The position numbers were made by a program, and so were the translations under genes. The notes beneath the pieces are model-generated. The model searched no databases, was not told where the DNA came from, and saw only the letters and a list, made by a program, of their open reading frames with translations. A stretch of 64,000 nucleotides of DNA from positions 35,292,107 through 35,356,106 of the forward strand of contig CM042091.1 of assembly GCA_023512835.1 (NCBI GenBank), read 5' to 3'. Below are positions 9,863-49,640 of the stretch, in pieces (the first letter of the stretch is position 1; each line of letters opens with the position of its first letter). Source of the stretch: Taxillus chinensis. Its lineage: Eukaryota > Streptophyta > Magnoliopsida > Santalales > Loranthaceae.

Positions 9863-10725
9863 CTTTGGAATGAGAAAATAAGAGCAAAGAGCGGAAAACT
9901 GAAGAGCAAGAGAGCAAAAGGGCGAGTTTCTCTAATACTCGGATCCGGAGTGATTTTGGTGTGGAAGCCTTTGAAGATGGCCTCCCTTTATATAGCGTGC
10001 AGAAGGAAAGATGCTCCAATTGGCGTGATACACGTGCCCCTAACTTTTCAGAGTGTTCTGACCAAAATAGCCTCTGCACGTGAATTGGCCGAATTGGCGT
10101 GCAGGTCAGAATCGTTCCAAACTTTGGTGGTGGGTCCCCCTTGAGCTGGCAAGCAATAGTCCCTTCTGCACGTGAATTTGTTGAAGCTTTTTGCATTTTT
10201 GGGCCTCCATATGACAGCTAGCAATTCGCGTGCAAGAGTAAATGTGATTCACATGGTCTTCATCTACCATTCCAGAAAGTTACAGCTCAAAAGGAGGTGC
10301 ACGTGAATTGGGCAATTCACGTGCAAATTCACGTTCAGGCCCAAACTGGCCCAAATTTCTCCACTGAGTTGCTTATGCATTATGGACCATCTTTAAGTCT
10401 TGCACGTGAATTGTTTGAGCCCATCTTCAAGCACATTTGGGCTTCACTTGGTCCTTGCTCCTTGACTTTGACTTTTAAAAATAAGTCCACAAGTTCAGGA
10501 CCCAATAATTTGCTCATCCTGCACATGGTTAGTTAAGAAAGAAGCAAAGTCTCCTGCACAATGGTTAGCTTGCAAACAAATTTATTTAATAAAATAAATA
10601 AAAGAAAATAACATAAAATAAAACATAGCAATAAACATTGGGTTGCCTCCCAACCAACGCTTTATTTAAAGTCTGTAGCTAGACTTTCAGTTATGATCAT
10701 GCAATGGTAAAAGAGAGGGAATCAA
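9863..10725 (-). promoter_or_regulatory. Spacer between integrase and ORF3 with promoter-like motifs
   Basis: No ORF is shared with the homologous spacer of element C (47030-47901). It holds six CACGTG G-boxes (10031, 10077, 10169, 10300, 10318, 10403) and, on the minus strand, TATATAAAG (9994-9986) about 124 bp before the ORF3 start. The G-boxes sit in contexts such as GCACGTGAATTGGGCAATTC that resemble the LTR U3. The integrase-proximal end carries the GGGAGGCAACCCAA motif (reverse complement near 10645) also found after the coding region of A and B. I read it as a second, internal promoter for ORF3; the expression claim is inference. Confidence 0.65.
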
Positions 10726-11890
10726 CTATCTCCCCTCGAGTTGAATCAAAGTATGGTTTGACCTATTGCCATTCACCCAAAATTTCTTGCCATCTACGAC
10801 TTGGAGCTCAAAGCTCCCATATGGCTTCTTATCAACTATCACAAAAGGTCCCATCCACTTGGACCTTAATTTACCAGGAAATAACCTCAACCTTGTGTTA
10901 AATAGAAGAACTTTCTGCCCTAAGGTTAAAGGTTCATTGTTGAGTTGCCTATCATGCCATTTCTTAGTTCTTTCTTTGTAAAATTTAGCACTATCATAGG
11001 CATCCAACCTAAGCTCATCTAACTCAATTAATTGAGTCATCCTAAGCTCCTTGATCTCTTGTGGGTTAAAATTTAACTTCTTCAAGGCCCAATGAGCCTT
11101 GTGTTCTAGTTCCACAGGCAAGTGACATGCCTTACCATATAGAATACGGTAAGGTGACATCCCAATGGGAGTTTTGTAAGCTGTCCTATATGCCCATAAG
11201 GCTTCATCAAGCCTTTGAGACCAATCTTTCCTATTGGCTCCAACAGTTTTCTCTAAAAAAGGCCTTAATCTCCCTGTTGGACACTTCTGCTTGTCCATTA
11301 GCTTGTGGGTGGTAAGCTAAAGACTTCCTATGAGTGACACCATACTTGTTCAATAACTTGTCAAACAATTTGTTGCAGAAATGACTACCCTCATCACTAA
11401 TTATAGCCCTTGGTGTCCCAAAACGGCTAAAGATGTTCCTAGTAAGGAAGTGAGTCACAACCCTAGCATCATTCACTCTAGTAGGAATAGCTTCTACCCA
11501 CTTAGACACATAATCCCACAGCAAGCAAAATGTATGAGTAGCCATCGAATTGGGGAATGGCCCCATGAAGTCAATGCCCCAAATGTCAAAAATTTCAACT
11601 GGAAGGATTCCCAGCCAAGGGCATCTCATTTTTCCTAGACAAACCACCTACCCTTTGACATCTATCACACTTTTTGATGTAGACATAGGTGTCTTTCACC
11701 ATGTGAGGCCAATAAAAGCCACACTGCATGATCTTAGCCACAGTTCTCTGCACCCCAAAGTGGCCCCCATAATGTGATGCATAACAATGATGTATTATGT
11801 CATCTACTTCCTCCTCAAGGACACACTTTCTAATGATTTGGTCTGGACACCTCCTATAAAGAATTGGGTCTTCCCAAATGTATTTCTTAG
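10726..11890 (-). pseudogene. Element F integrase, frameshifted
   Basis: Minus-strand integrase of a Ty3/gypsy element. The HHCC zinc-binding region is seen as [13 protein letters not shown] followed by KKCDRC. The catalytic core has the first Asp in [11 protein letters not shown], the second in [11 protein letters not shown] and the Glu in [10 protein letters not shown]. The C-terminal part ([20 protein letters not shown] and on to about 10726) matches Athila integrases. Frames change near 11.6 kb and 11.24-11.30 kb. Compared with C, a 1-nt insertion (NSMATHTFCLLWDYV in place of YILLAVDYV) breaks the core. Its role would be insertion of the cDNA into chromosomal DNA. Confidence 0.9.
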
Positions 11891-11999
11891 CATCCACTAC
11901 CAATTTCTTTCTCTGGTGGTAGTCTAACCGCTTGGGTATGAACCCAGTGGCTAAATAATTTGCTATGTCAACAAACCAAGGAAGATGATGCACCTCAAA

Positions 12000-13785
12000 C
12001 AACTTCTCATCAGGAAAGTCATCTACAATGGGTAGAGACTTAGGTGCATTCTCCACACGGGAGAGGTGATCAGCCACAGAATTTAGGGCTCCCTTTGTGT
12101 CTCTAATTTCAAGGTCAAATTCCTGTAAGAGGAGAACCCATCTAATCAAGCGTGGCTTAGCTTCTTTCTTAGCAAACAAATATTTCAATGCAGCATGATC
12201 AGTATAAACAATGACTTTAGACCCCAAAAGGTAGGGTCTAAACTTGTTGCAGCCATAAACCACGGCTAGCAACTCTTTCTCAGTGGTGGTATAGTTCTGT
12301 TGAGCATCATCTAAGGTCTTACTAGCATAGTAAATGACCCTAAACACCTTTTCTCGCCTTTGCCCTAAGACTACCCCCACAGCATAATCACTCGCATCAC
12401 ACATTAGCTCAAAAGGCTGAGCCCAGTCAGGTGTGACTATAACAGGTGCAGTGACTAACTTACCCTTGAGGATGTTGAAGGCTTCTAAGCAATTTGCATT
12501 AAACTCAAAGCTAGTGTCTTTTTCTAACAACGTACTCATGGGTTTTGCAATTTTTGAGAAGTCCTTAATAAATCTCCTATAAAAGCCAGCATGGCCAAGG
12601 AAACTTCTCACTCCTTTTTCATTGGTTGGAGGTGGCAGAGTCTCAATAGTGGAGATTTTTGCCTTGTCTACCTCCAAACCATGTGCAGACACCTTGTGCC
12701 CTAGAACTATCCCCCCGTTACCATGAAATGGCATTTCTCCCAATTTAGGACTACTTCCTTCTCCTCACATCTCTCTAAGACCACATCTAGATTTTTCAAA
12801 ACCTTTGTTGGTAGGAGGAACCAAACACCGAGAAGTCATCCATGAAGACCTCCATGATCTCCTCAACCAAACCCTGAAAAATAGCCATCATACACCTTTG
12901 AAAGGTGGCAGGGGCATTACAAAGCCCAAATGGCATTCTCCTAAATGCAAATGTGCCACAAGGGCACGTGAAGGTGGTCTTTTCTTGGTCCTCGGGCTTA
13001 ACCATGATCTGATTATACCCGGTCACAGCTAACCTATCCAACATTTGATCAATGAAAGGAAGAGGAAAATGATCCTTCCTAGTAGCCTTGTTCAGCTTTC
13101 TATAGTCAACACATACTCTCCACCCCGTCACAGTGCGAGATGGGATCAATTCATTTTTCTCATTTTTAATCACGGTCATGCCCCCTTTCTTGGGCACAAC
13201 ATGCAATGGACTCACCCACTCACTATCTGAAATAGCATAAATTATACCCGCATTTTTCCATTTTAAAATTTCTTTTCTAACAACTTCTTTCATGGCAGGG
13301 TTTAATCTTCTTTGTCTTTCAGTAGTGGGTTTAAAATCATCATTCATCAAAATTTTATGCATGCAAATCCCTGGACTAATACCCCTAATGTCTTCAATGT
13401 TCCATCCTAGGGCCTTTTTGTGTTTCCTAAGGACTTCTAACAATTGAGTACACTCCACATCATTCAAATTAGAAGCAACAATGACAGGGAATTGATTTGT
13501 AGAGTCTAGAAATTCATACCTTAGGTGTCCAGGCAGCTCCTTCGATTCTGGAGCTGGATGCACGTCATCTTCTTTCTCCTCCTCGGCTTGCTCCAAAGAG
13601 TTTGTAGTTTGCTCATCTTCCTCAGTTGTCAAGTACATCTCTTCATCTTGTTGAGCTTCTATAAGCTGAAGGGCTCCATCATTGGTGGTGGTAATTTCTT
13701 CTGCCAAGTAATCTTCCACCAATTCCTCAAGGTCTTCAACCCAAAGGCAATCCTCCTCCTCTTGACCTTGCAAAGCCTTCCCCAT
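12000..13785 (-). pseudogene. Element F reverse transcriptase and RNase H, lacking RT motif A
   Basis: The RT begins after a linker (GHLRYEFLDSTNQFPVIVAS) and shows RVCVDYRKLNKATRKDHFPL, FRRMPFGLCNAPATFQR and the catalytic FMDD box (near 12835). RNase H follows ([14 protein letters not shown] near 12400, [23 protein letters not shown]). Against element C, about 35 bp are missing between DRLA and GYNQI (around 13025). The lost part holds the first catalytic Asp of the palm (the LDGYSG motif), so this RT should be dead even if the frameshift near 12.77 kb is ignored. Confidence 0.9.
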
Positions 13786-13843
13786 GTGGAAGACTAAGGT
13801 CTCCTCATTAATTCTCGAGTTAGCTGCCCTTGAGCAACATCAA

Positions 13844-14782
13844 TCAATGCACAACCCGTTTTGAGAAACGGTCTTCCAAGGAGTATTGAACTCCTCTATC
13901 TTCTTCCATCTCCAAAACTACAAAGTCCGCTGGAAATATGAAGGAGCCCACTTTAACTAGCACATCTTCAATGATTCCTTCAGGTCTTCCAGTGGACCGG
14001 TCTGCGAACTGCAATGATATGGAAGTGGGCTTCATGCCCTTGAGCCCAAGCTGCTTGTACAAAGCAAAGGAGATCAAATTGATGCTAGCCCCTAAATCAC
14101 ATAGGGCCTGCTGTTGCGGTGCATTGCTAATCACACAAGGGAGATTAAAGCTACCCGGATCTTTATGCTTGATGGGCAAACTCTGTTGAACAACACTGCT
14201 CACCTCGTTAAGGATCGCCACCGTCTCATGATCCCCATATTTCCTCTTCTTTGTCACAAAATCTTTGATGTATTTTCTGTACCTAGGCATCTGCTCCAAG
14301 ATTTCCACAAATGGAATGTTAATCTCAAGCTTCTTGAATAAACTCAGGAAGCGCTCATACTCTTCCTCAACCCTCTGGTTCCTTAGCCTCTGAGGAAATG
14401 GCAAAGTAGGCCTGAGCTCTTGCCTCTGTTCGTCAGCTATTCTGTCTTGACTCAGCTGCTTGTCCTTCTTTTCTTGCACTCTTTCTTCAGCTTTATTTGA
14501 TTTTCCTTGGTCATCAGCTTCCAAGGGTCTGCTTTGTTCTTCTGGAATTGGCCTTTTCTTAGGCTCTTCAGCTTCATTCAGTGTCTTCCCGCTCCTTAGA
14601 GTGATAGCCTTGCAACTCTCCTTGGGGTTCACCTCAATGTCACTTGGAAAAGTATTGGTTGACACCCCTTGATTTACATTCTGAGCCAAACTCACAAGCG
14701 ACTTTTCTATATTCTTCATTGAAGATTCCATGGTGACTACCCTTTCCTCCAAACTATCCTCTCTTTTGGTTGGCTCATCCAC
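13844..14782 (-). pseudogene. Element F gag C-terminal part and aspartic protease
   Basis: A 312-codon open stretch with the end of gag (LEERVVTMESSMKNIEKSL, ESCKAITLRSGKTLNEAEEP), a Lys/Glu-rich linker, a conserved LFKKLEINIPFVEILEQMPR block, and a retroviral-type aspartic protease with the DLGAS active-site signature in ALCDLGASINLISFALYKQL. The flap/core segment EDVLVKVGSFIFPADFVVLE follows. The protease would cut the gag-pol polyprotein. A frameshift after GVQYSLED disrupts the LLGRPFL motif kept in element I. Spacing to the RT shows that gag-pol was one long frame. Confidence 0.88.
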
Positions 14783-16076
14783 ATTCTCGATATACCCTTC
14801 CTCTTTGTCTTGTTGAGGCTAAGGCTCGTTTCCCGCTCGAATCCTGGAGGTGGGTGTAAATAATTATCCGTAGCATACGGATTCTCGCTTCATCCCTGGG
14901 GGCACATATTTGTACTTGAAATGAGGTATCTCCCCCTCGGTTCCGAGTTCTCCGAAATGGCCGAGGCTACTGCTGGTTCTGGTTGTACCCTTGTTGTTGT
15001 TGTTGAGGATAAAATTCGGCGTTTTCGGTACAAGCCCTTTCCTCCAACATAATTTGCTTCTTGACTCCACTCCACCTTGCTCAACTACTGGTAAAGCTCG
15101 TGATCCTTCAACTTTAAGAGCCAATACTTCCATGCCTTTCACTAAAGCTTGAATCGTGCTTGCACATCATTGGAAGAATTTTCAACCGAAGCTATCTTCT
15201 CCCTCGGCTTTGAAGTACGCACATTAGACCACCGCCAATCGGCTAATGACGGCCTCTCCAAGAGCTCTGTCTGCGTCAGGCTCTAGGTTCATCAAGCATC
15301 CTCCAGAATTGTATTCACCTTGTCTTGTGAATGGGACTGAAGACCTGTGTAGAAAGATTCAATTTGAATCCACTGGGGTCTTCCATGATCAGGGCATCTT
15401 CTCACTAAGTCTTTGAAACGCTCCCAAGCTTCATGAAGAGTCTCCAACTCATGTTGCCTGAATCTGCTAATCTCCCCTCTGAGCTGGATCACCTTGGAAG
15501 GAGGGAAGTACTTTGACATGAACTTGGTCTACATCTCCTCCCAAGTGTTGATTGAACTTGTTGGCGATCGTTGAACCAGCCAAGAGCTCTTTCCCTTAAA
15601 GAGAAAGGGAAAAGCCTTAGCTTTATTGCCTCCTCCGACACATTGTTGATCTTGATGGTGTCGCACACCTGGTAGAACCTCATCAAATGCTGGTGTGGAT
15701 CATCCACGACTGTTCCTCCAAACGCGTTGTTGCTCACCATGTTGATCAACGCCGGCTTCAGCTCAAAGCTAATTGCTTGGACTCTTGTTTGCCGAATCCC
15801 AGAATAATGGTCTGACATCATTGGCCTCGCATAGTCTAAGAAAGTTCTGGGCATAAACCTATTACCCTCTTCTTCTGGATATTGGCCATTGTAATTGGCT
15901 CATCCCTGCGGTGCGCCACCATCAGGTCTGAGATCTGCCATCAGATCGCCTACGGATTGCTCCAGGCCTTGCAATGCTTCTTCAGCCTCACGTGCTGCTT
16001 CCCTAGCTGCTCTACGCCGAGCTCTGAACAACCTTTCAGGTTCCCGAGTAAATTGTATATCCTCCTCTCTTTGCAT
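14783..16076 (-). pseudogene. Element F gag, multiply frameshifted
   Basis: The start ATG is at 16076 (MQREEDIQFTREPERLF), followed by an Arg/Ala/Glu-rich helix and then the Athila gag core (RTFLDYARPMMSDHYSGIRQ, RLFPFSLRERALGWFNDR, AWERFKDLVRRCPDHG). It would form the particle that packages element RNA. Frame breaks occur near 15,890, 15,500, 15,300, 15,150 and 14,850. Many coincide with CAG/CTG triplets that are intact in element I, for example 14,775-14,850 against 29,600-29,660, so some may be sequence errors rather than mutations. Confidence 0.85.
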
Positions 16077-16261
16077 GCACAACTAGGAATCCTTGATGTA
16101 TGTTCCTGTAAAACAACAAGAACACACCCAGCAGCTCCGAACAATGCAAAAGAAACAAATAAAGAACACAAAATAATAGAAAATAAAAGACAAAGTAAAC
16201 ACCAAGATCAGAATTCAAACAATTTCACTCAATGTTGATTTTAAAAACTAGTTAACCGTTG

Positions 16262-16281
16262 AATCCCCGGCAACGGCGCCA
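16262..16281 (-). promoter_or_regulatory. Element F primer-binding site, tRNA-Asp
   Basis: On the minus strand this reads TGGCGCCGTTGCCGGGGAT, complementary to the 3' end of plant tRNA-Asp(GTC), three bases inside the 5' LTR. It primes minus-strand cDNA synthesis. An Asp primer is usual for the Athila lineage. Confidence 0.95.
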
Positions 16282-16284
16282 ATT

Positions 16285-17774
16285 TGACAGACAAGATTTT
16301 TAGCCTCTCTAAGAGCTTGCTAATGTCGTTAAATCTCTCTTCAAAATAATAAATTCCCTAAGTTTGCACTAAAAGAATAGCAGCAAGCAAGGGGTCGAAC
16401 CAACAGGGATTAACCTAGTTCTCTAGTTCTCAAATCAAAACACCCAATTACTCTTGTTCTATAAAATGTCTTGGCAAAAAGTTTTCTTTTTTAAACTAAA
16501 GGTCTAATTTTTATTTGGTTTTCTGAATAAACAAAGAAAGTAAACTGATTTTAAGATTAAGATTCAAGGATTAAAAGCATCTAGGGTCACAATTTCACCT
16601 CCCTATGTTATCTCTACTGGTTCATGGTATTAGGGTTTTCTGATTGAAAACATGCTAAACACAAGCCCAAGGACAACAAATGGTCATTGAGGTCCTTTTA
16701 AGAGTTGTATGCCAGAATGGTTATCTAAACACACAAACATGCAAAGCCAATAAATCATACTTGCAAAAGGATAATGATCACACCAATTACAAATAAGTTA
16801 TGAATCTCAATCGCCCTTGGACTAGGGCTAAGAATACCAAGGTGTACATCCAAAGATAGAATTAAGAACAGATTCATAAAACATGCAAAACTCAATCATC
16901 CAAACCCAATATTCATAAACACAGTAAAGCAACAACGGGGCTACATTGCTCCCCTAGATTAAAATACTACTCACGCATGATTACAAGCAAACACAAAGCA
17001 GAAAAGCTCAACGTCTTCTTCTTGATCACGCGCACAGCAAAGCTTCAAATCCAGGCTCCAAAATCCGCAACGGCTGCTGCGACGGCTGCTCTCCTAGGTC
17101 AAGGAGCACCTCCAAGTCGTGGAGCCTCTCTCTCTCTCTAAAAACATGTAGGGGGGTTAGGTCTAGCAAGGGGCGTGGAGCTCTTATTTATAGAGTTTGG
17201 ATGGGCCTTGAGGTGTGTAACGTAGCCCACCTATCAAAACGACGTAGTTTTGATAAGTAACACTCGAAACATTAAAAACTCTATCTTCCATCCACAATTT
17301 GGACTTGGGCCTTGGAAACAAATGATCATCATGGAAAAACGATTGGATCGGTCCAAAAACATCTCTGCACGCCAATTTGCACGTGATATGGTGAATTCAC
17401 GTGCACCTCCAAATCAGCTCAAACTTCTCCCCAAGCTTCCTTGCATCCTGTAGAGGCCTGAGAGGCAAAAATATGCTTGCACGTGATATGGGTGAATTCA
17501 CGTTCAGCTCCAAATGCTCTGAAATTTCTGTGGTAGGTAGAGGACATCATTCTAAGAAACTTTTGTTCTTGCACGCCAATTGTTTGAGGCCATCTACTAT
17601 GTCAAAAGTGAGGTCCAAAACCTGCCAAAACAGCTTAAAAGCGCATGTATTTGCAACTAGCAGCTTCCTAGGGGTTAGAGCAAATATATATGATATATGA
17701 AGAAATAAGGCTCTAATCATGCTCTTAACATCCTAAATAAACACTAGAATAACGGCATAAAATGCACGTTATCA
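16285..17774 (-). repeat. Element F 5' LTR
   Basis: LTR of 1,490 bp, partner of 4456-5935, read on the minus strand from TGATAACG (17774) to CTGTCA (16285). It contains the U3 CACGTG repeats (17380-17500), the ACGT palindrome (near 17236-17257), a TATAAATA box (near 17190) and the polyadenylation/U5 end. Confidence 0.95.
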
Positions 17775-17989
17775 ATAAGCTCCCTCTTATTCACCTCAAC
17801 GAAATGGAAATCCCTCAGTAGCCTGACCAATTCAGCTATGGGATCTTTGCTTGCTACTACATGATGGCTATTCTGCAAGGGAAGGAAACTTGGGAAGTGC
17901 ACGGCGAGACGTTGATTGACTTTGTGGCTCAGGTGCGACGGATGGTGGCCAATGTCATCTATTATTACAGCTTGCCAACTAAGAGGTAA
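17775..17989 (+). pseudogene. Element G ORF3, C-terminal end of Ulp1-like domain
   Basis: Continues 2983-4455 after the second copy of ATAAG. It encodes the LPLIHLNEMEIPQ block, then a CAG-to-TAG stop just before PDQF, then SYGIFACYYMMAILQGKETW and the terminal AQVRRMVANVIYYYSLPTKR. The catalytic Cys of the QFSCG motif is Tyr here. The stop TAA at 17987 lies inside AGAGGTAAGT, a consensus-quality 5' splice site. The copy is inactive for three separate reasons: insertion, nonsense codon and lost nucleophile. Confidence 0.88.
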
Positions 17990-38178: not shown

Positions 38179-39988
38179 TTACCTCTCAGTTGGCAAGCTG
38201 TAATAATAGATGACATTGGCCACCATTCGTCGCACCTGAGCCACAAAGTCAACCGACGTCTTGCCGCGCACTTCCCAAGTTTCTTTCCCTTGCAGAATAG
38301 CCATCATGTAGTAGCAAGTAAAGATCCCATAGCTAAATTGGTCTGGCTGCTGAGGGATTTCCATTTCGTTGAGGTGAATAAGAGGGAGCTTATCCTGCAA
38401 CAAGCCTTCTTTTTTCATCGCATCCTTGATTCTTTTTATGAGCCCATGAACAAGCCGTCTCTTTCTTCTGGTGAACTCTTCGCCTTGGCTTGGATCATAA
38501 ATCACCGCATGCCCTGCACTCAAATCCACACGCACCAAGACATAATGACGATCAATGTGCACAGGGATCAACACCTCGTGCATACCATGCCAAGGACGGT
38601 GCCCTTCATTCTGCCCATTTATACGCTGGCGCCACACACTTTCAGTCAAAGGTTGCTCATAAAGCTCGCACAGCATAATAGAGGTATACTGGGATAGTGG
38701 GTAATTATGAGGTTCAGCCTCCACAACAAAACGCATAGTCTTGCAAAACAAGTCCACCTCATCTGAATATAGATATTCATCGCCTAAAATCCTTTGAAGG
38801 ACAAACGAGGTGAAGAGATCCATGTCCCTTGCAAATCGAGCCCTTAACACCTGAGAAGTAATGAAGTCTTCAAATGTTGCTTGACTTTCAGCAGATGATA
38901 AGGCTGGATTAATGATTAAATAGATAGGAGGGCCAAGAAGGTCTTCAGGTTCAGCAGGCATGTATGTACCCCAAGAGACAGGATGTATAACAGGCACAAT
39001 AGCCCAGGAAAAGGCTGGAAACTTCACCCCTAGCCTCCTCCTGGCCAGTCCTCCTTCTGCTGGCTCTTTCTCCTCTTGAGGCTGATAGTAGGATGGCCTA
39101 GCTGAAGATTCTGGTTGAGGTGGATCCGCCTGGGCCGGATAAGAAACTTCAGGGGATGGAGAGGGTTCTTCGTCAGATATCTCCACTATAGGAGAACGTT
39201 TTGATGCTTTCCTCTTCCTCAAGGCCTTCCAGATTTTGCCTAGGAGGCCTTTGACTTCTTTGTTGTCCTTCCTCAGGGCTTCCACCTCGCGCTGGGTTCT
39301 AGCATTTGCCTCCTTGAGCTGCTGTGTTTCTTGCCTCCAAGCTTCGGTAGATGCAGCAGGAGGAGCTTCTGGGGCCTCCCATGCTTTGGTTCTAGGTTGT
39401 GAAGTAGCTTCTCGATCTCCAGAGATGAGGGCCATTAATTCTTCAAATTGAGCACTAGTGATGTGCCCATTAGTGACTGCCCAATTGATGACCTCCACTT
39501 CGCTCACCACCTGCCCACTAATGCCTTGAAGGAAATTGAAAATATCTTCTTTGTGTACATTGAACTGCATGTACATGGCAGTGAGTCTGTATAGAGTCTG
39601 CTTCCTTTGATCCAAATGAGGAGAGGTCTCCCTTGCAAAGTCAGTGGATCGCTCTACATGAACACTGTGCCTAGCGGGCTGTGATGGAGGAGGAACATTG
39701 GTTGCCCAATGACCTCTGGTACTTATCCCCAAACCTCCTTCAGCATGCAATACTCTTAACACCCAGTGAGAAGGAAAAGTGATGCTATCCATGGAGGAAA
39801 AATGCAAAGCAGGCATGCTTTGAAATATCAAACACAAAAATCTGCCATTTATCTGCTTTGATGAGTTTTTCTTCCACCATTTAAAAATGGTAGTGGCCCA
39901 ATCCAGATTTAGCATATGATCAATGCTATACATCAACTCCAGGTGTGGCTTAGGCACACTATCTATCCCACTGTCCGAATCAATAAGC
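38179..39988 (-). pseudogene. Element C ORF3, main part: coiled coil and Ulp1/C48-like protease domain
   Basis: An uninterrupted frame of about 600 codons, the longest ORF in the window. In order (from the break with B): YSIDHMLNLDWATTIFKWWK; a helical block SPHLDQRKQTLYRLTAMYMQ; a coiled coil (WRQETQQLKEANARTQREVE); a basic KRKASKRSP patch; a Pro/Ser/Glu-rich linker; then the protease-like domain. Ulp1-family landmarks are the His in IPVHIDRHYVLVRVDL, the Asp in VIYDPSQ, the Gln in EIPQQPDQ and the nucleophile site in QFSYGIFTCYYM, where Cys has become Tyr. The stop at 38179-38181 overlaps a consensus 5' splice site (AGAGGTAAGT). Family members remove SUMO-like tags; the role in a retrotransposon is unknown. 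Split from its N-terminal part by element B. Confidence 0.88.
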
Positions 39989-39993
39989 ATTTC
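39989..39993. repeat. Left target-site duplication of element B (ATTTC)
   Basis: ATTTC is repeated at 46561-46565. With one copy removed, the flanks join as GCATTTCCCTAC, as in the uninterrupted copy of F near 9390. Confidence 0.95.
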
Positions 39994-41494
39994 GATAACG
40001 TGCATTTTATGCCGTTATTCTAGTGTTTATTTAGGATGTTTAAGAGCATGATTAGAGCCTTATTGCTTCATATATCATATATATTTGCTCTAACCCCTAG
40101 GAAGATGCTAGTTGCAAATACATGCGTTTTTAAGGTTGTTTTGGCAGATTTTGGACCTCACTTTTGACATAGTAGATGGCCTCAAACAATTTGCGTGCAA
40201 GAACAAAAGTTTCTTAGAATGATGTCAACTACCTACCACAGAAATTTCAGAGCATTTGGAGCTGAACGTGAATTCACCCAATTCACGTGCAAGCCTATTT
40301 TTGCCTCTCAGGCCTCTACAGGATGCAAGGAAGCTTGGGGAGAAGTTTGAGCTGATTTGGAGGTGCACGTGAATTCACCATATCACGTGCAAATTGGCGT
40401 GCAGAGATATTTTTGGACCGATCCAATCGTTTTTCCATGCCGATCATTTGTTCCTGAAGGCCCAAGTCCAAATTGTGGATGGAAGATAGAATTTTTAATG
40501 TTTCGAGTGTTACTTATCAAAACTACGCCGTTTTGATAAGTGGGCTAGGGTACACACCTCAAGGCCCATCCAAACTCTATAAATAAGAGCTCCACGCCCT
40601 CTGCTATGCATGCCTAACCCCCTACACGTTTTAGAGAGAGAGAGAGGCTCCACGACTTGGAGGTGCTCCTTGACCTAGGAGAGCAGCCGTCGCAGCAGCC
40701 GTCGCGGAATTTGGAGCCTGGATTTGAAGCTTTGCTGTGCGCGTGATCAAGAAGAAGATGTTTAGCTTTTCTGCTATGGTTTTGCTTGTAATCATGCGTG
40801 AGTAGTTCTTTTAATCTAGGGGAGCAATGTAGCCCCCTTGTTGCTTTCTTTGTGTTTATGAATATTTGGGTTTGGATGATTGAGTTTTGCATGTTTTATG
40901 AATCTGTTCTTAATTCTATCTTTGGATGTACACCTTGATATTCTTAGCCCTAGTCTCGGGGCAGATTGAGATTCATAACTTATTTGTGATTGGTGTGATC
41001 ATTATCCTTTTGCAAGTATGATTTATTGGCTTTGCATGTTTGTGTGTTTAGATGACCATTCTGGCATACAACTCTTAAAAGGACCTCAATGACCATTTGT
41101 TGTCCTTGGCTTATGTTTAGCATGTTTTCAATCGGACAACCCTAATATCATGAATCAAGTAGAGATAACATAGGGAGGTGAAATTGTGACCCTAGATGCT
41201 TTTAATCCTTGAATCTTAATCCTAAAATCACTTTACTTTCTTTGTTTGTTCGAAAACCAAATAAAAATTAGATCTTTAGTTTAAAAGAAGAAAACTTTTT
41301 GCCAAGACATTTTATAGAACAAGAGTAATTGGGTGATTTGATTTGAGAACTAGAGAACTAGGTTAATCCCTGTGGGTTCGACCCCTTTCTTGCCGCTTAT
41401 TCTTTTAGTGCAAACTTAGGGAATTTATTATTTTGAAGAGAGATTTAACGACATTAGCTAGCTCTTTTAGAGAGGCTAAAAATCTTGTCTGTCA
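39994..41494 (+). repeat. Element B 5' LTR
   Basis: LTR of 1,501 bp, GATAACG to CTTGTCTGTCA. The first T seen in other copies is C of the target duplication here. The TATA box CTATAAATAA is near 40577. Confidence 0.95.
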
Positions 41495-41497
41495 AAT

Positions 41498-41517
41498 TGG
41501 CGCCGTTGCCGGGGATT
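41498..41517 (+). promoter_or_regulatory. Element B primer-binding site, tRNA-Asp
   Basis: TGGCGCCGTTGCCGGGGAT, a full match to the Asp primer site, 3 bp after the LTR. A T-rich leader follows to about 41715 with no ORF. Confidence 0.95.
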
Positions 41518-41733
41518 CAACGGTTAACTAGTTTTTAAAATCAACATTGAGTGAAATTGTTTGAATTCTGATCTTGGTGTTTTATTTTGTCTTTTAAGTT
41601 CTGTTATTTTTGTTTGCGTTTTTTATTTGTTTATTTTGCATTGTTCGGAGTCCTGGGTGTGTTCTTGTTGTTTTTCAGAACATACATCAAGTGTTTGAGG
41701 TATTGCTAGTTGTGTATGCGATGAGGGGAACTT

Positions 41734-43158
41734 GTGTCCTTTAATCCAGAACTGAATAGCACTCCAATGGATAGACAGTTTGGAGATGAGGAGGAGCTAA
41801 CCATGGAACAATGTTTGGAAAGGATGATCCAATGCAACAAATATTTGTGGGAAAACCAAGGGAGAGATGAGGAGAATTCAATGATGGCAGACCAACATGT
41901 TTATGTTCCAGGCCATGCAGCAGATCAATTTTCATATAGTGCTTGGGATTGCACTGTCTATGATTCTCCCATAAACAGTTATTCATACCAGGAGCCTCCT
42001 TGTTATGGTGGGAGTATTAATGGAGATGGTAGAGAAGTATGGCCAACTTGCACCCAACCTGAGGGTGACTACTATCCACAAGAGCCACCACCTGAGGAGT
42101 TTAATGGTTTCTTCAATGGATATTCTGAGAATAGATGGGTTGGGCAATATCAAGATGAAGGTTACTATGAAGCCCCACTCTATGGCAATTATTGTCCATA
42201 TCAACAACAAGAGTGGCAGCCCCAAGTTGAAGATGAAGAAACCAAGAGAGGCTTTGAATGAAAGGCTAGGAAGTTTGGAGACTACCATAAAAAATGTAGA
42301 GCAATTATTGATGAGTATGGTTCAAAATGCAGATAACGGAGTCTCATCTAACTCCTTTGTTGGTGACACGAGAGATAGAGCCGAAGAGAATTGCAAAGCC
42401 ATCACTCCAACTTTCATGTATCAATCTTTGACATCCGCCTCACAAGAATGGGAGTTTTTCGCTAATAATGATTCTGAAGATGAAGCTCGCATTCTAGATG
42501 GTCAAACCATTAATCTTGCTATAGAACAAGGAGTGGATACAAGGGCAATGGTTCATTATGATGAGGTTGTCCCTCCACCACAATTTAATAGCCCATGTGA
42601 TGTATCCACTTCAACTCTTCCCATGGTTGGAGCTTATGAGGACAATTTTTCCATCCAAGAAGAAGAGGAAGACTTGAATTGTTCGGGGTGTTAGAAGAAC
42701 ATGAGAAACCAATAAATGACAACCCAAGGATGCAGCAACAAATCTTGGATGATGATGCTATAATTCTCATATCTGAAGGCACATCAAACCAAGGTACTCT
42801 TTATGAAGACAAGCTACATGAGCCCACCACTACTATGTTTGCTTTGGACTCATCTTCCCTTATACAAGAGAAGGAAGTGCTTGACAAGGGAGGTAACCAT
42901 GCGTGCATCATGACTACTCCAATTGTGGAGTATGTTGAATTTGTGTTACCATCTCGATGGAATGAGAGGAAGGAGAACCATAAGTTTGTGGAGGTGTCTC
43001 CCTATCAACAATTGAATCAGGAGTTCAAGTGGCTCCCACAGCGGTTCATTCATCCGATTGCTATGGTCTATGAGGCTGCCGAGGTTTACAATGCAAGGAT
43101 GAAAGCCTTTCATACATTGGTTGAGTTTAGTATGACAAAGTCTAGCTACGGACCTTAA
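41734..43158 (+). pseudogene. Element B orphan ORF, gag-derived, two frameshifts
   Basis: Reads from about 41734 (no clear ATG in frame; a TGA lies just upstream) to TAA at 43156. It is rich in Glu, Gln, Tyr and Asn. The middle (ERLGSLETTIKNVEQLLMSM, DNGVSSNSF, ENCKAIT) matches the gag C-terminal block of F/I (ESSMKNIEKSLVSLAQN, ESCKAITLRS), so it derives from gag. The rest (PMDRQFGDEEELTMEQCLER; EYVEFVLPSRWNERKENHKF) I do not recognise. Frame shifts lie near 42240 and 42690; the homologue in A is open across the second site, so the breaks differ between copies. It could be a specialised packaging protein of a parasitic lineage; this is inference. Confidence 0.8.
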
Positions 43159-43315
43159 ATAAAGCGCTTGTTGGGAGGCAACCCAATGTTTATTGCTATG
43201 TTTTATTTTATGTTATTTTCTTTTATTTATTTTATTCAATAAATTGTTTGCAAGCTAACCATTGTGCAGGAGACTTTGCTTCTTTCTTAACTAACCATTT
43301 GCGGGATGAGCAAAT
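43159..43315 (+). other. Post-integrase noncoding motif retained in B
   Basis: Starts TAAATAAAGCGCTTGTTGGG followed by AGGCAACCCAA, the reverse complement of sequence after integrase in F (near 10640-10660) and C (near 47820). It shows that the deletion that made B removed PR to integrase but kept the region just after, up to ATTATTGGGTC, where it jumps to the end of ORF3. Confidence 0.8.
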
Positions 43316-43484
43316 TATTGGGTCAATTCAGTTGTGGGATCTTTGCTTGCTACTACATGATGGCTATTCGCAAGGGAAGGAAACTTGGAAAGTGCGCGGC
43401 GAGACGTCGGTTGACTTTGTGGCTCAGGTGCGACGAATGGTGGCCAATGTCATCTACTATTATAGTGTGCCAAACCAGGGGTAA
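43316..43484 (+). pseudogene. Element B ORF3 remnant (last 55 codons)
   Basis: Begins at QFSCGIFACYYMMAI, keeping the Ulp1-type nucleophile Cys, then a 1-nt deletion (ATTCGCAAGG) and the end AQVRRMVANVIYYYSVPNQG with TAA at 43482 in GGGGTAAGTG. There is no start codon of its own, and it lacks the catalytic His and Asp, so it cannot be a protease. Confidence 0.85.
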
Positions 43485-44358
43485 GTGTTTTTCCTACTCC
43501 CTATTTTATGCCATGAGGACATAGCATATTTTAAGTGTGGTGTATGGGGAGTGACTTGAGCCACTTGTTTGTCCTTTATATTGTGTGATTGCATGTCTTG
43601 TTTTTGTTTAAGTGTTTTTGTTGTCCTTTATTTTTATTTTGCATGATTGTTTGAGTTGTTTGCTTGAATGATTTGCTTGTGGAGGCATGGATATTAAGTA
43701 TGCAATTTTGGCTTAAAATTTAATTTTTATGCCACATTAGTATCATGTTGTAATAAGGGTGTTAAAGTAGTTAAAATGTGCTCTGAATTGGTTTAATCAT
43801 GTCTATATCTTTTGAATGATATCACCATGTTTTTGGAGCTGAGTTTTGAATATTAGCTGAGCATGAAATGCTATGATAGACCTAAGTAACCCTTAAAGTT
43901 GAGTGAAAAAGAAATGAAAAATGAGAAACGACTTCTTTTTAGCCCTTGAGTGACATTTATGGTTTATGGGTAATAGTTTGATTTGCTACTCATCTTGCAT
44001 TCAACATTGGTTATTTAATGGTAGGAGTCAAGTAAGCATGTGATTACTTATTAGTGCTCGGTGTTTGGTGTGTGGAGTTAGGATGCAAGACCTCTAAGTC
44101 ATTGTGGACTGTCTTTGCATTCTTTTCTTTATTTTGTGATATTATTAGAAAAGGCTGTGATATAGAATGTGAAAAAGCCATCACTTAATTGGGAAATGGG
44201 ATGTGAGACATCAATGAATTTGTCTCTCCTTATGTAGCAAAATGGCAAGGGGTATGCATTAGAAAAATCAGTCTTATTTATGTGTTATGTGAGTAAAAAA
44301 AAAGAGAGTGAATAATCCATCAAGGGAGAGCATAAAATGCAACCTTGTAAGGTTATTA

Positions 44359-44420
<62 letters not shown>

Positions 44421-45058
44421 GATTCAGAATACAAGCCACAATGGCATGATGTTTATGTGTGATTGTTTAGATTTGTGAAGCCACATTGGCTGAATTGTGT
44501 TTTGTTTTGAGAGTGTTGAGCTCAATTCTCTGGCTCATGTTTTGTTTATTCAGTTATTAGAATAGAGTGTGAGTTCAAATAAAGTAGAATAGAGAGTGTG
44601 TTTTCTTTGATGAGCACAATAGGGAACTCTCATGATTGCTTGGCAAGTACTTAATCAATAGGCGATGGCGAGTGTAGAGATAGAGTTTTCCATCCATTGT
44701 TCATTGATAGGTATTGGGCTTGAGAATTATTATATTTGAGTGAGGCTGCTTATCCTTGGTAAGGACTTAAAGGGAAACTAGGTGCTATTTTATCATGGAT
44801 TGCTTGCTTATATCCTGAAATTTAAGTGGTGATATTGCATGATTGTTGGACTTAGGATATGGACATGAATGAACTAAGTTATGACTCATTTTGATGCTTA
44901 AATTCCCATTTCATCATGATAGAGTTGCATGCTTAGGAAACCATGATTCTCCTTGATTGTTATTTTATTTTTCTTCCGTTTGACTGCGTGTTTATTTTAT
45001 TTTTGCATGCTTGTATGTTTTTGCTTGAGGACAAGCAATGGTTCAAGTGTGGTGTATT
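43485..45058 (+). other. Element B conserved 3' noncoding region with long poly-A
   Basis: The shared noncoding module. The variable tract after AACCTTGTAAGGTT is an uninterrupted A run of 53 (44362-44414), far longer than in other copies. It ends at TTCAAGTGTGGTGTATT before the LTR. Confidence 0.88.
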
Positions 45059-46560
45059 TGATAACGTGCATTTTATGCCGTTATTCTAGTGTTTATTTAG
45101 GATGTTTAAGAGCATGATTAGAGCCTTATTGCTTCATATATCATATATATTTGCTCTAACCCCTAGGAAGATGCTAGTTGCAAATACATGCGTTTTTAAG
45201 GCTGTTTTGGCAGATTTTGGACCTCACTTTTGACATAGTAGATGGCCTCAAACAATTTGCGTGCAAGAACAAAAGTTTCTTAGAATGATGTCAACTACCT
45301 ACCACAGAAATTTCAGAGCATTTGGAGCTGAACGTGAATTCACCCAATTCACGTGCAAGCCTATTTTTGCCTCTCAGGCCTCCTAGGATGCAAGGAAGCT
45401 TGGGGAGAAGTTTGAGCTGATTTGGAGGTGCACGTGAATTCACCATATCACGTGCAAATTGGCGTGCAGAGATATTTTTGGACCGATCCAATCGTTTTTC
45501 CATGCCGATCATTTGTTCCTGAAGGCCCAAGTCCAAATTGTGGATGGAAGATAGAATTTTTAATGTTTCGAGTGTTACTTATCAAAACTACGCCGTTTTG
45601 ATAAGTGGGCTAGGTACACACCTCAAGGCCCATCCAAACTCTATAAATAAGAGCTCCACGCCCTCTGCTATGCATGCCTAACCCCCCCTACACGTTTTAA
45701 GAGAGAGAGAGAGGCTCCACGACTTGGAGGTGCTCCTTGACCTAGGAGAGCAGACCGTCGCAGCGCCGTCGCGGAATTTGGAGCCTGGATTTGAAGCTTT
45801 GCTGTGCGCGTGATCAAGAAGAAGATGTTTAGCTTTTCTGCTATGGTTTTGCTTGTAATCATGCGTGAGTAGTTCTTTTAATCTAGGGGAGCAATGTAGC
45901 CCCCTTGTTGCTTTCTTTGTGTTTATGAATATTTGGGTTTGGATGATTGAGTTTTGCATGTTTTATGAATCTGTTCTTAATTCTATCTTTGGATGTACAC
46001 CTTGATATTCTTAGCCCTAGTCTGGGGCAGATTGAGATTCATAACTTATTTGTGATTGGTGTGATCATTATCCTTTTGCAAGTATGATTTATTGGCTTTG
46101 CATGTTTGTGTGTTTAGATGACCATTCTGGCATACAACTCTTAAAAGGACCTCAATGACCATTTGTTGTCCTTGGCTTATGTTTAGCATGTTTTCAATCG
46201 GACAACCCTAATATCATGAATCGGTAGAGATAACATAGGGAGGTGAAATTGTGACCCTAGATGCTTTTAATCCTTGAATCTTAATCCTAAAATCACTTTA
46301 CTTTCTTTGTTTGTTCGGAAAACCAAATAAAAATTAGATCTTTAGTTTAAAAGAAGAAAACTTTTTGCCAAGACATTTTATAGAACAAGAGTAATTGGGT
46401 GATTTGATTTGAGAACTAGAGAACTAGGTTAATCCCTGTGGGTTCGACCCCTTTCTTCTTGCTTATTCTTTTAGTGCAAACTTAGGGAATTTATTATTTT
46501 GAAGAGAGATTTAACGACATTAGCTAGCTCTTTTAGAGAGGCTAAAAATCTTGTCTGTCA
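45059..46560 (+). repeat. Element B 3' LTR
   Basis: LTR of 1,502 bp, TGATAACG to CTTGTCTGTCA. About nine small differences from 39994-41494; most fall at CAG/CTG triplets, for example ATCAAGTAG (41155) against ATCGGTAG (46220) where A has ATCAGTAG. Confidence 0.95.
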
Positions 46561-46565
46561 ATTTC

Positions 46566-47029
46566 CCTACCAGGTAAGCTAGGCATCTAAATCTTCCAGC
46601 AAAACCATTCTTGGTATACTACCTTCTACTTTGAAATTTTCTAACATAGTTGCATGCAGTACCAAATTCTCCTAGGCTTAGCTGAGGAAGGCTATCACTG
46701 GGTGCAGGGAGGTTAAAGCAATGTCTAATAATTTCAGGGGTAATCCTGACATAAACCCCTTGCACAACCCCTATTAGTTCATCCTCACTCCCAGAGATAG
46801 ATGCATAAAATTCTTGTAGGGCAGAATAGGAAATAGCTGGCTGGGCAGATACTAACCTTTGTAATCCCAGATTTTGAATTTTAAGAGCCACTTCTCTAGC
46901 CCATCACAGCTCTGAAGCCTTCAAAGTCTGCATATCAAGAGCATGCCCCAAGAGTATCTCCTCCTCAGGTTGGCTATCAGCACTAGGTGAGTGCACCTCC
47001 TCCTGGCCAGTCCTCCTTGTGTGCACCAT
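46566..47029 (-). pseudogene. Element C ORF3, N-terminal part (putative plant transposon protein-like domain)
   Basis: The start ATG at 47029 lies 116 bp downstream of TATATAAAG. After a Glu-rich leader (GQEEVHSPSADSQPEEEILL) there is one stop (GAGCTGTGATGG near 46908), then ALKIQNLGLQRLVSAQPAIS, LQEFYASISG, GVYVRITPEIIRHCFNLP and EFGTACNYVRKF. The EFYA...VRI.PEIIRHCFNLP pattern resembles the 'putative plant transposon protein' family found in plant retroelements, function unknown. It continues through FAGRFRCLAYLVGK directly into 39988 once element B is set aside. Confidence 0.8.
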
Positions 47030-47901: not shown

Positions 47902-49083
47902 TCAACTATCTCCCTCTCGAGTTAAATCAAAGTATGGTTTCGGTCTGTTGCCATTTACCCAAAATTTCTTGCCATCTACGACTTGGAGCTCAAAGCTCCC
48001 ATATGGCTTCTTATCAACTATCACAAAAGGTCCCATCCACTTGGACCTTAATTTTCCAGGAAATAACCTCAACCTTGTGTTAAATAGAAGAACTTTCTGC
48101 CCTAAGGTTAAAGGTTCATTGTTGAGTTGCCTATCATGCCATTTCTTAGTTCTTTCTTTGTGAAATTTTGCACTATCATAGGCATCCAGCCTAAGCTCAT
48201 CTAACTCAATTAATTGAGTCATCCTAAGCTCCTTGATCTCTTGTGGGTTAAAATTTAACTTCTTCAAGGCCCAATGAGCCTTGTGTTCTAGTTCGACAGG
48301 CAAGTGACATGCCTTACCATATAGAATACGGTAAGGTGACATCCCAATGGGAGTTTTGTAAGCTGTCCTATATGCCTATAAGGCTTCATCAAGCCTTTGA
48401 GACCAATCTTTCCTATTGGCTCCAACAGTTTTCTCTAAAATGGCCTTAATCTCTCTGTTGGACACTTCTGCTTGTCCATTAGCTTGCGGGTGGTAGGCTA
48501 AAGACTTCCTATGAGTGACACCATACTTGTTCAATAATTTGTCAAACAATTTGTTGCAGAAATGACTACCCTCATCACTGATTATAGCCTTTGGTGTCCC
48601 AAAACGGCTAAAGATGTTCCTGGTAAGGAAATGAGTTACAACCCTAGCATCATTCACTCTAGTAGGAATAGCTTCTACCCACTTAGACACATAATCCACA
48701 GCAAGCAAAATGTATGAATACCCATCAGAATTGGGGAATGGCCCCATGAAGTCAATGCCCCAAATGTCAAAAATTTCAACTGGAAGGATTCCAGTTAAGG
48801 GCATCTCATTTTTCCTAGACAGACCACCTACCCTTTGACATCTATCACACTTTTTGATGTAGACATAGGTGTCTTTCACCATGTGAGGCCAATAAAAGCC
48901 ACATTGCATGATCTTTGCCACAGTTCTTTGCACCCCAAAGTGGCCCCCATAATGTGATGCATGACAATGATGTATTATGTCTTCTACTTCCTCCTCAAGG
49001 ACACACTTTCTAATGATTTGGTCTGGACACCTCCTATAAAGAATTGGGTCTTCCCAAATGTATTTCTTAGCATCCACTACCAA
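47902..49083 (-). pseudogene. Element C integrase, one nonsense codon
   Basis: The best integrase in the window. [17 protein letters not shown] and KKCDRC. DDE core: [22 protein letters not shown] and [10 protein letters not shown], all three acidic residues present. The C-terminal domain runs to about 47902 ([20 protein letters not shown]). A single TGG-to-TAG change near 48375 (ALWAYR to AL*AYR) separates two long open stretches. Confidence 0.92.
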
Positions 49084-49103
49084 TTTCTTTCTCTGGTGGT
49101 AGT

Positions 49104-49640
49104 CTAACCGCTGGGTATGAACCCGGTGGCTAAATAATTTGCTATGTTAGCAAACCAAGGAAGATGATGCACCTCAAACAACTTCTCATCAGGAAAGTCA
49201 TCTACAATGGGTAGAGACTTAGGTGCATTCTCCACACGGGAGAGGTGATCAGCCACAGAATTTAGGGCTCCCTTTGTGTCTCTAATTTCAAGGTCAAATT
49301 CCTGTAAGAGGAGAACCCACCTAATCAAGCGTGGCTTAGCTTCTTTTTTAGCAAACAAATATTTCAATGCAGCATGATCAGTATAAACAATGACTTTAGA
49401 CCCAAAAAGGTAGGGTCTAAACTTGTTGCAAACCATAAACCACGGCTAGCAACTCTTTCTCGGTGGTGGTATAGTTACGTTGAGCATCATCTAAGGTCTT
49501 ACTAGCATAGTAAATGACCCTAAACACCTTTTCTCGCCTTTGCCCTAAGACTACCCCCACAGCATAATCACTCGCATCACACATTAGCTCAAAAGGTGAG
49601 CCCGGTCAGGTGTGACTATAACAAGTGCGATGACTAACTT
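49104..49640 (-). pseudogene. Element C RNase H, frameshifted
   Basis: The Ty3-type RNase H after [43 protein letters not shown], then [20 protein letters not shown] and the tether [21 protein letters not shown] frame change near 49436 (one extra base in the TTTGCAACAAG stretch) and others near 49600 and 49115 break it. It degrades template RNA during cDNA synthesis. Confidence 0.88.

What the first reader, a model, noticed from the sequence alone, without database searches (positions are those of the whole stretch)
38179..47029. Athila-type retrotransposon carrying an Ulp1/C48-like protease in a composite accessory gene
The gene after integrase (F 7503-9862; C 38179-39988 plus 46566-47029; G 2983-4455 plus 17775-17989) joins a domain resembling the putative plant transposon protein family, a coiled coil, a basic patch, a Pro/Ser/Glu linker and a C-terminal domain with Ulp1-type landmarks: His in DRHYVLVRVD, Asp in YDPSQ, Gln in IPQQPDQ and Cys in QFSCGIF. 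This is the slot where Athila elements usually have an env-like gene. Ulp1-type proteases are known passengers of some plant Mutator-like DNA transposons; I do not know of them as a standard part of Athila. A de-SUMOylating activity could protect the element from silencing, but that is inference.
Basis: partly seen in the sequence, partly recalled or inferred. Interest (0 to 1): 0.78.

Follow-up and report, generated by a model that had tools for sequence, protein, structure and literature searches.

The report
Plant retrotransposon with SUMO-protease-like gene
A common plant jumping gene, and a second one of another kind in the same genome, carry a conserved gene that looks like an enzyme for cutting protein tags such as SUMO, in the place where an envelope gene was expected, which hints that they tamper with host regulation rather than build an envelope.

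Summary
The gene downstream of integrase in elements C and F (minus strand) and G (plus strand) ends in a real Ulp1/C48 domain: PF02902 E=5e-9 in C, and 3e-6 to 1.6e-11 in four natural copies of the same 521-Mb genome. SENP1 aligns over the His/Asp/Gln/Cys columns. The window copies are decayed: C has Tyr for the catalytic Cys, G has Tyr plus a stop, only F keeps Cys. In 68 genome copies Cys stands in 63; three copies are uninterrupted (770-785 aa); the C48 region is the most constrained part (pooled pN/pS 0.23; off-frames 0.95 and 1.34).

Beyond the finding: (1) a ~530-nt protease-core cassette exists in two deeply diverged forms (dS ~1-1.4, dN/dS 0.12), exchanged among otherwise uniform elements; (2) a Ty1/copia family in the same genome carries a related gene of the same layout.

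Best reading: a maintained deSUMOylase-like accessory protein acting against host SUMO-linked control. Catalysis, substrate and anti-silencing are inferred. My open-access searches listed no report of C48 in Athila; supplementary tables were not readable.

The parts
38179..40014 (-). Element C, ORF3 downstream piece (611-aa open frame; its first few codons lie in the nested element D)
46566..47029 (-). Element C, ORF3 upstream piece (ATG at 47029; carries in-frame stops), weak PF20167 match
   Evidence: E=0.0011, 19.4 bits, below cut-off 45
38266..38574 (-). C48 (Ulp1) core match in C
   Evidence: PF02902, residues 478-580 of P0001, E=5.2e-9
38545..38547 (-). Catalytic His codon (CAT)
38494..38496 (-). 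Catalytic Asp codon (GAT)
38350..38352 (-). Oxyanion Gln codon (CAG)
38329..38331 (-). Catalytic Cys position, TAT (Tyr) in this copy; TGT in 63 of 68 genome copies
38371..38904 (-). Exchangeable protease-core cassette, subtype I in this copy
   Evidence: 73 diagnostic sites, residues 368-545 of P0001
39166..39189 (-). Candidate SUMO-interacting motif IVEISDEE, after a basic patch (39196-39237)
   Evidence: the pattern also arises in 2.7-4.0% of shuffles
47902..49146 (-). Element C integrase, in two reading frames; pol stop to ORF3 ATG 873 nt
   Evidence: (rve and H2C2 in the 48376-49146 piece)
39994..46560 (+). Nested LTR element D interrupting the C gene (LTRs about 39991-41498 and 45057-46564 in the blastn table); no pol domain found in the two D frames scanned
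7503..9862 (-). Element F ORF3 (frameshifts and stops; keeps Cys)
4456..17774 (-). Element F, with LTRs at both ends (4456-5936 and 16285-17774, K2P 0.0165), TSD ATAAG, primer site TGGCGCCGTTGCCGGGGA at 16264-16281
2983..4455 (+). Element G ORF3, first part (interrupted by F)
17775..17989 (+). Element G ORF3, last part (Tyr at the Cys site, stop at the second Gln of the Gln pair)
43324..43484 (+). ORF3 3' remnant in D (Cys codon TGT); similar remnants at 31299-31466 (CGT) and 58213-58363 (starts inside the codon)

Best explanation
This is an accessory gene (ORF3) of an abundant Athila-like Ty3/gypsy family. Where uninterrupted it encodes 770-785 aa: a transposon-protein-like N-part, a coiled coil, a basic patch with a SUMO-interacting-motif-like stretch, a Pro-rich linker and a C-terminal Ulp1/C48 cysteine protease. 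Shown here: the domain, its catalytic residues, its constraint, its retention in many copies and its cassette exchange. Inferred: the protein enters the nucleus, binds SUMO or SUMOylated proteins, and removes SUMO (or a related tag) from host factors so that the element escapes silencing or other SUMO-dependent restriction. The element keeps it for that reason, and it is not an envelope gene. My estimates: a maintained Ubl protease 0.9; SUMO as substrate 0.6; anti-silencing as the main purpose 0.4.
For: C48 above the Pfam cut-off in C and four natural copies. A profile of 22 copies finds 13 distinct PDB sequences up to E=1, each a SENP1/2/5 or Ulp1, best E=2.2e-4. His 67 of 68, Asp 67 of 68 (66 of 68 by the protein alignment), Gln 59 of the 63 copies with letters there, Cys 63 of 68. 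Pooled pN/pS over the 68 copies: C48 0.23, N-part 0.38, coil/linker 0.68; C48 off-frames 0.95 and 1.34. C-F pair in the C48 region: w=0.21 (0.12-0.33); C-F integrase 0.08; F against another gag-side copy 0.17. Two C48 lineages at dS ~1-1.4 with dN/dS 0.12. Integrase sequence of this family just upstream in 19 of 20 copies tested. The exact Cys-site string occurs 341 times in the genome, the reversed control 0. A related gene sits in a copia family. Ulp1-carrying VANC genes (KIU) of VANDAL transposons are described as anti-silencing in PMC13317346 (passages).
Against: No activity, expression or localisation data exist here. The Trp after the catalytic His in SENP1 is Tyr in 68 of 68 copies, so specificity may differ from SENPs. 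Single-sequence PDB matches are weak: best E 0.0026 for the C piece, 0.02 for the complete copy L043, 0.059 to SENP1 for the copia protein. The last part of G against C does not separate frames (0.37 in frame; 0.35 and 1.02 off frame). Cys is not among the most conserved columns (174 of 257 are higher). The SIM-like pattern arises in 53-79 of 2000 shuffles. In Arabidopsis the SUMO ligase activity of PIAL1/2 and the SIM of MOM1 were dispensable for silencing (PMC6084981, passages). All three window copies are broken. Structure models are low confidence (pLDDT 37 and 53). Searches with P0001 in 5.8 billion proteins found no relative, so spread of the Athila form beyond this genome is untested.
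Confidence: 0.6

Rival explanations
1. The protease acts on the element's own proteins (Gag, integrase or ORF3 itself), removing SUMO or ubiquitin so that particles assemble or enter the nucleus; silencing is not the target.
For: The C48 region is constrained much like gag-side and pol frames, the gene sits next to integrase, and a related gene occurs in a second retrotransposon superfamily.
Against: No SUMO site or interaction was tested; DNA transposons with another life cycle also carry Ulp1 domains (PMC2836005, passages), which favours a host-directed role.
Confidence: 0.22
2. It is a peptide-bond maturation protease like viral CE-clan proteases, cutting the element's polyprotein.
For: Foldseek hits of the weak model also include, lower down, a poxvirus core protease and bacterial effectors (CE-clan label recalled). 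The Trp after His of SENPs is absent.
Against: SENP/Ulp1-type SUMO proteases make up 21 of the 22 hits with E<=0.001. The element has a constrained gag-side frame where the usual protease would lie (13844-14818), although Pfam gave no hit for it.
Confidence: 0.1
3. A non-catalytic Ubl-binding or env-like structural domain; catalysis is not what is selected.
For: C and G have Tyr at the Cys site; 5 of 68 genome copies do overall, C among them. Cys is no more conserved than many other columns.
Against: The 5 Tyr copies need 5 separate changes on each of two trees, each TGT to TAT, and 63 of 68 keep Cys. The change fits decay of a methylated CHG site (inference).
Confidence: 0.06
4. A captured host fragment riding along without function.
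For: Plant TEs often capture gene pieces (PMC13317346, passages).
Against: Frame-specific constraint and a long-diverged pair of C48 lineages; a similar layout in a second superfamily.
Confidence: 0.02

Closest known systems
KIU / VANC-Ulp1 genes of VANDAL Mutator-like transposons (PMC13317346, passages)
   Same: A transposon accessory gene carrying an Ulp1 domain; conservation noted; anti-silencing described for VANC.
   Different: A MULE DNA transposon, not an LTR element. Ours follows integrase, and its N-part matches PF20167 weakly; it was not compared with VANC.
Ginger1 transposases with C-terminal Ulp1 (PMC2836005, passages)
   Same: Ulp1 domain on a mobile element whose integrase-like transposase groups with the Athila/Tat type.
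   Different: A DNA transposon (hydra in the table passages seen) with Ulp1 fused to the transposase itself; here it is a separate ORF of an LTR element.
Athila accessory ORF with PF20167 in sunflower, 487 aa (PMC11728184, abstract and section 2.5)
   Same: Same slot (3', sense), PF20167-related part, predicted nuclear signal.
   Different: No C48 domain is reported in that section; ours is longer by a coiled coil, linker and protease.
Human SENP1/SENP2/SENP5 and yeast Ulp1
   Same: Catalytic order His-Asp-Gln-Cys, local alignment, top structure hits.
   Different: 14-21% identity in the SENP1/2/5 and yeast Ulp1 Foldseek rows with E<=0.001; Tyr in place of the Trp after His; substrate unknown.

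Membership tests
Peptidase C48 (PF02902) | Profile match above the curated cut-off | tested here: met
   36.7 bits in C; 27.6-44.9 in four natural copies; cut-off 20.7
Peptidase C48 (PF02902) | His-Asp-Gln-Cys catalytic residues in order | tested here: met
   67/68, 67/68, 59/63 and 63/68 copies (one search counts Asp 66/68 and Gln 59/68). The window copy C itself has Tyr
Peptidase C48 (PF02902) | Papain-like CE-clan fold | tested here: inconclusive
   Foldseek best E=8.1e-6 to SENP5, 21 of 22 hits with E<=0.001 SENP/Ulp1-type SUMO proteases, but mean pLDDT is 53 and rmsd 7.7-9.6
Peptidase C48 (PF02902) | Isopeptidase activity on a ubiquitin-like protein | not testable with these tools
   no bench data
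SENP/ULP SUMO proteases proper | Trp directly after the catalytic His | tested here: not met
   Tyr in 68 of 68 copies; SENP1 has Trp in the alignment. That this Trp defines the group is recalled. The copia relatives have His-Trp
Athila lineage (Ty3/gypsy) | gypsy order RT-RNaseH-integrase with a single RNase H (no Tat-type extra RNase H) | tested here: met
   RVT_1, RT_RNaseH, Integrase_H2C2 (F) and Integrase_H2C2, rve (C); no second RNase H in the 7 F and C pieces scanned, which do not cover every base of pol
Athila lineage (Ty3/gypsy) | tRNA-Asp-type primer site | tested here: inconclusive
   TGGCGCCGTTGCCGGGGA stands 3 nt after the 5' LTR of F; that this is the tRNA-Asp site typical of Athila is recalled. 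tRNA-Asp is among the primers of non-chromoviruses (PMC6317226, passages)
Athila lineage (Ty3/gypsy) | Placement in an RT tree with Athila references | not tested
   no plant reference RTs on hand
Athila lineage (Ty3/gypsy) | Athila ORF-1 domain (PF03078) | tested here: inconclusive
   no hit in the ORF3 scans, but whether this Pfam copy still holds the model was not checked, and it was found in only 16% of Athila elements (PMC6317226, passages)
Mutator-like elements with Ulp1 (KIU) | MULE transposase beside the Ulp1 gene | tested here: not met
   LTRs, primer site, RT and rve integrase instead; no MULE transposase among the Pfam hits of the pieces scanned
Retroviral-type envelope gene | Signal peptide and transmembrane helix | not tested
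   no predictor run; domains found are C48 and a weak PF20167

The most novel reading that the evidence does not exclude
Plant LTR retrotransposons of both superfamilies share one accessory gene family, a nuclear Ubl-protease protein. Its protease core is exchanged as a cassette between element lineages, as host-facing genes of viruses are. The 'env-like' slot of at least some plant endogenous retroviruses is then a host-manipulation enzyme, and the two long-diverged core types are kept for different targets.
Probability: 0.33. Interest if true: 0.84.

Novelty: new variant of a known kind. Interest (0 to 1): 0.68.

Why it matters
What the genes after pol do in plant 'endogenous retroviruses' has been open; PMC6317226 calls their function rather speculative (passage). 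A conserved C48 protease in at least 72 scored copies of an Athila-like family, with a related gene in a copia family, gives that question a testable enzyme. If active, it joins SUMO control, retrotransposon spread and the known Ulp1 genes of DNA transposons, and points to host SUMO machinery as a repeated target of plant mobile elements. The cassette exchange is a natural experiment in which, along ORF3 and integrase, mainly the protease core differs between otherwise alike elements.

Tried and rejected
Rejected: a MULE origin of the locus (LTRs, primer site and integrase present). Rejected: Tyr at the Cys site as the family state (5 of 68 copies, five separate changes). Rejected: the subtype split as a plain subfamily split (integrase and N-part divergence are alike within and between subtypes). 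Led nowhere: protein database searches with P0001, scans of viral and prokaryote contigs, NCBIfam, the first structure model (pLDDT 37). An early dN/dS script used the wrong frame and was replaced. The genome-wide count of the Tyr string did not complete, so the 341 Cys strings have no matching Tyr count.

On print: no paper on C48 or Ulp1 in Athila stood in the listings. Only (3 papers; 2; 3) were listed whole; the others showed 20-25 of 39-875 papers. Of the three papers holding both 'Athila' and 'Ulp1' I read passages of one (PMC2836005) and did not open the other two. Open-access text only.
Full report
OBSERVATION. The gene after integrase is present in three nested elements: C (minus strand, 38179-40014 and 46566-47029, split by element D), F (minus strand, 7503-9862) and G (plus strand, 2983-4455 and 17775-17989, split by F). 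D duplicates 5 bp (ATTTC) inside the C gene while F has that site whole, and F duplicates ATAAG in G. The LTR pairs differ by K2P 0.0165 (F) and 0.0094 (D); the pol stop and the ORF3 ATG are 873 nt (C) and 864 nt (F) apart.

THE DOMAIN IS REAL. PF02902 matches the C product at E=5.2e-9, an F piece at 1.7e-5 and the G piece, which lacks the Gln/Cys part, at 0.062; the C-terminal piece of C alone gives 1.8e-9. phmmer against the PDB gives SENP1 at best E=0.0026 with the His, Asp, Gln and Cys columns in register. Other single sequences are weaker: 0.0059 for whole P0001 and 0.02 for the complete copy L043. A profile from 22 natural copies gives SENP1 at 2.2e-4, and each of the 13 distinct matches up to E=1 is a SENP1/2/5 or Ulp1. 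Of two AlphaFold models the first (two sequences) is unusable at pLDDT 37. The second (three sequences, pLDDT 53, pTM 0.55) gives 22 Foldseek hits with E<=0.001: 21 are SENP or Ulp1-type SUMO proteases and one is SseL. Because the model is weak, I count this as support and not as proof of fold.

THE WINDOW COPIES ARE DECAYED. The Cys codon is TGT in F and in the D remnant, TAT (Tyr) in C and G, and CGT (Arg) in the remnant at 31299: 2 of 5 read Cys. G also has a stop in the Gln pair.

THE GENOME SETTLES THE FAMILY STATE. The window lies in a 520.9-Mb genome. P0001 matched 150 places; 72 of 10,448 candidates were scored, so copy numbers are lower bounds. By my count 72 of the listed places reach the C-terminal end; I examined 68 of them (L001-L068, the window's C copy included). 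Left out were C4:8178410, C5:5331, C5:23866030 and C5:24838607. Cys is present in 63 of 68, Tyr in 5; His in 67; Asp in 67 by nucleotide projection and 66 by protein alignment; Gln in 59 of the 63 with letters. The 5 Tyr copies need 5 changes on both trees (FastTree). Three of the 68 loci have an ORF3 uninterrupted from the usual start to the stop: 785, 771 and 770 aa. In these three and in a 753-aa frame that starts later, PF02902 scores 27.6-44.9 bits (E 3.2e-6 to 1.6e-11), and PF20167 20.9-24.7 bits, under its cut-off of 45. Integrase sequence of the same family lies upstream in 19 of 20 copies tested, in two of them (L074, L081) only its last part; the exception, L077, has only a 30%-identical integrase on the other strand. 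An exact 25-base string around the Cys codon occurs 341 times in the genome, the reversed control 0 times. That count can include remnants such as those in the window, and the Tyr counterpart search did not complete.

CONSTRAINT. Between C and F the C48 region has dN/dS 0.21 (bootstrap 0.12-0.33) in frame and 1.40 and 0.87 in the other two frames; C against the first part of G gives 0.22 (0.10-0.45), off-frames 1.38 and 1.13. The short last part of G does not discriminate: 0.37 in frame, 0.35 and 1.02 off frame. For comparison: C-F integrase 0.08, C-F RT/RNaseH side 0.34 (0.13-0.88), and the gag-side frame of F against the copy near 29.7-30.6 kb 0.17. Over all pairs of the 68 copies the pooled pN/pS is 0.23 in the C48 region against 0.95 and 1.34 off frame, 0.38 in the N-part (off-frames 0.76 and 1.10) and 0.68 in the coil/linker, where off-frames are similar (0.66, 0.88). 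The linker is thus little constrained as protein, while the protease is. The Cys position is not among the most conserved columns: 174 of 257 positions are higher (His and Asp: 52 of 257). The loss is each time TGT to TAT. On the other strand that C lies in a CAG (CHG) context, so decay of methylated DNA is a likely cause (inference).

CASSETTE EXCHANGE. The copies fall into two types by their protease core. One search sorted 43 as I, 23 as II and 2 unclear; with those two placed it is 44 and 24. Between types the median dS is 0.067 in the N-part, 0.122 in the coil, 1.384 and 0.943 in the two parts of the core, and 0.155 in the last stretch with Gln and Cys; within types it is 0.07-0.13 in each part. 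dN/dS across the core is 0.12. Seventy-three diagnostic sites lie between residues 368 and 545 of P0001, and one copy (L033, counted as I) is a mosaic within the core. Integrase divergence is alike: median 0.026 (I-I), 0.030 (I-II) and 0.032 (II-II), from 171 of 190 pairs of 20 copies; 19 pairs had too little overlap. Type changes once on the core tree and 14 times on the N-part tree; 200 label shuffles give 15-24, so there is some structure but many exchanges. The simplest reading is template switching between co-packaged RNAs of related elements (inference). At usual plant rates (recalled) dS near 1 means tens of millions of years under constraint. The donor of either core was not sought.

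A SECOND FAMILY. PF02902 searched in the genome gives 150 listed matches above cut-off (150 of 4,308 candidates scored), many of them over about profile positions 60-190. I read seven of these places, picked mostly for long open frames: L089-L094 and L098. Five carry the same gene (L089, L090, L091, L094, L098). Four of the five (L089; L091 with L096; L094 with L097; L098) have Ty1/copia reverse transcriptase sequence upstream on the same strand (PF07727, E=6.9e-71 in L097); L090 with L095 showed none. The gene (1059-aa frame in L098, 844 aa in L089) has an N-part, coiled-coil-like stretch, an acidic patch (VISDSDDDDD; not in L090), a Pro-rich linker and a C48 domain with His-Trp, Asp, Gln and Cys. 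PF20167 is at best weak: 19.5 bits in L090, 16.6 in P0003, no hit in L098. Profile comparison with the Athila gene aligns 317 columns of the N-parts, P=1.4e-21, 24% identity, from shallow alignments; the C48 parts are not in that alignment but match by pairwise BLASTP at 5e-5, whole proteins at 3e-7. Its C48 dN/dS is 0.17-0.26 in five pairs with dS 0.21-0.33, 0.56 in the close pair L091-L098 (dS 0.05), and 0.13-0.14 at dS about 2 in two pairs with L090; two further pairs with L090 were saturated. A public protein, P0003 (978 aa, 58% identical over the C48 region of P0002, 3377-bp contig, source label lgn), has the same layout. L092 and L093 carry other C48 frames; L092 shows distant matches to the copia gene; neither was worked out. 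The lineage of the copia family was not tested.

MECHANISM. Shown: domain, residues, constraint, copies, exchange. Inferred: activity, substrate, target. A basic patch (KRKASKR; its last Arg kept in 55 of 68) is followed by IVEISDEE, with I273, V274 and I276 kept in 67, 68 and 67 of 68 copies; the pattern occurs by chance in 53-79 of 2000 shuffles of four copies, so it is a lead only. Ulp1-carrying VANC genes of VANDAL elements are described as causing hypomethylation of their own kind (PMC13317346, passages); VANC itself is shown to do so in PMC5735166 (passages), whose text has no 'Ulp1'. In Arabidopsis the SUMO-ligase-like PIAL2 and MOM1 silence repeats, yet the ligase activity and the MOM1-SUMO contact were dispensable (PMC6084981, abstract and passages). 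The route by which deSUMOylation would help the element is therefore open.

KNOWN OR NEW. Ulp1 domains are known in Mutator-like and Ginger elements (PMC2836005, passages). A screen of 121 angiosperm genomes for extra domains in LTR elements names other domains (PMD, G-patch, AIR1, DUF1409 and more), and a term search of its text found no word beginning with ULP, SUMO or peptidase (PMC9289625, section 12 and term search). The same term search is empty for the survey of plant LTR elements (PMC6317226), and no word beginning with ULP was found in PMC7264820, PMC10508981 and PMC11963269 (passages only). Supplementary tables were not readable. A sunflower Athila ORF in the same slot has PF20167 and no C48 in the section read (PMC11728184, section 2.5). 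I therefore file it as a new variant of a known kind: accessory ORFs of plant LTR elements, here with a C48 protease. I do not file it as a SENP, because the Trp after His is not met.

Noticed in passing
L089, L090, L091, L094, L098 (genome loci): A gene with the same layout and a C48 domain, next to Ty1/copia pol in 4 of these 5 loci; 5 of the 7 PF02902 places read carry it, so it may account for many of the genome's C48 matches.
   Followed up: partly
L001-L068, residues 368-545 of P0001: The protease core occurs as two deeply diverged cassettes exchanged among otherwise alike elements; L033 is a mosaic.
   Followed up: yes
window 41725-43158 and 56561-57945: D-type relatives with the same LTRs carry their own reading frames, alike in two copies and partly gag-like by eye; Pfam found nothing in the two D frames scanned.
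   Followed up: no
window 31299, 43324, 58213: The three ORF3 remnants start close to the 3' edge of the cassette, near the catalytic Cys codon.
   Followed up: no
window 61861-63441 (+): A 526-aa frame with DUF4283 (E=8.7e-32) and a tandem LPSPPDG/LPSPQSDG repeat near its end, possibly a LINE-type ORF (recalled association).
   Followed up: no
L093 (C191:94103-98603): A 1092-aa frame with the best C48 score listed for the genome (84 bits, 79.7) on a small contig; host gene, other element or foreign DNA not decided.
   Followed up: no
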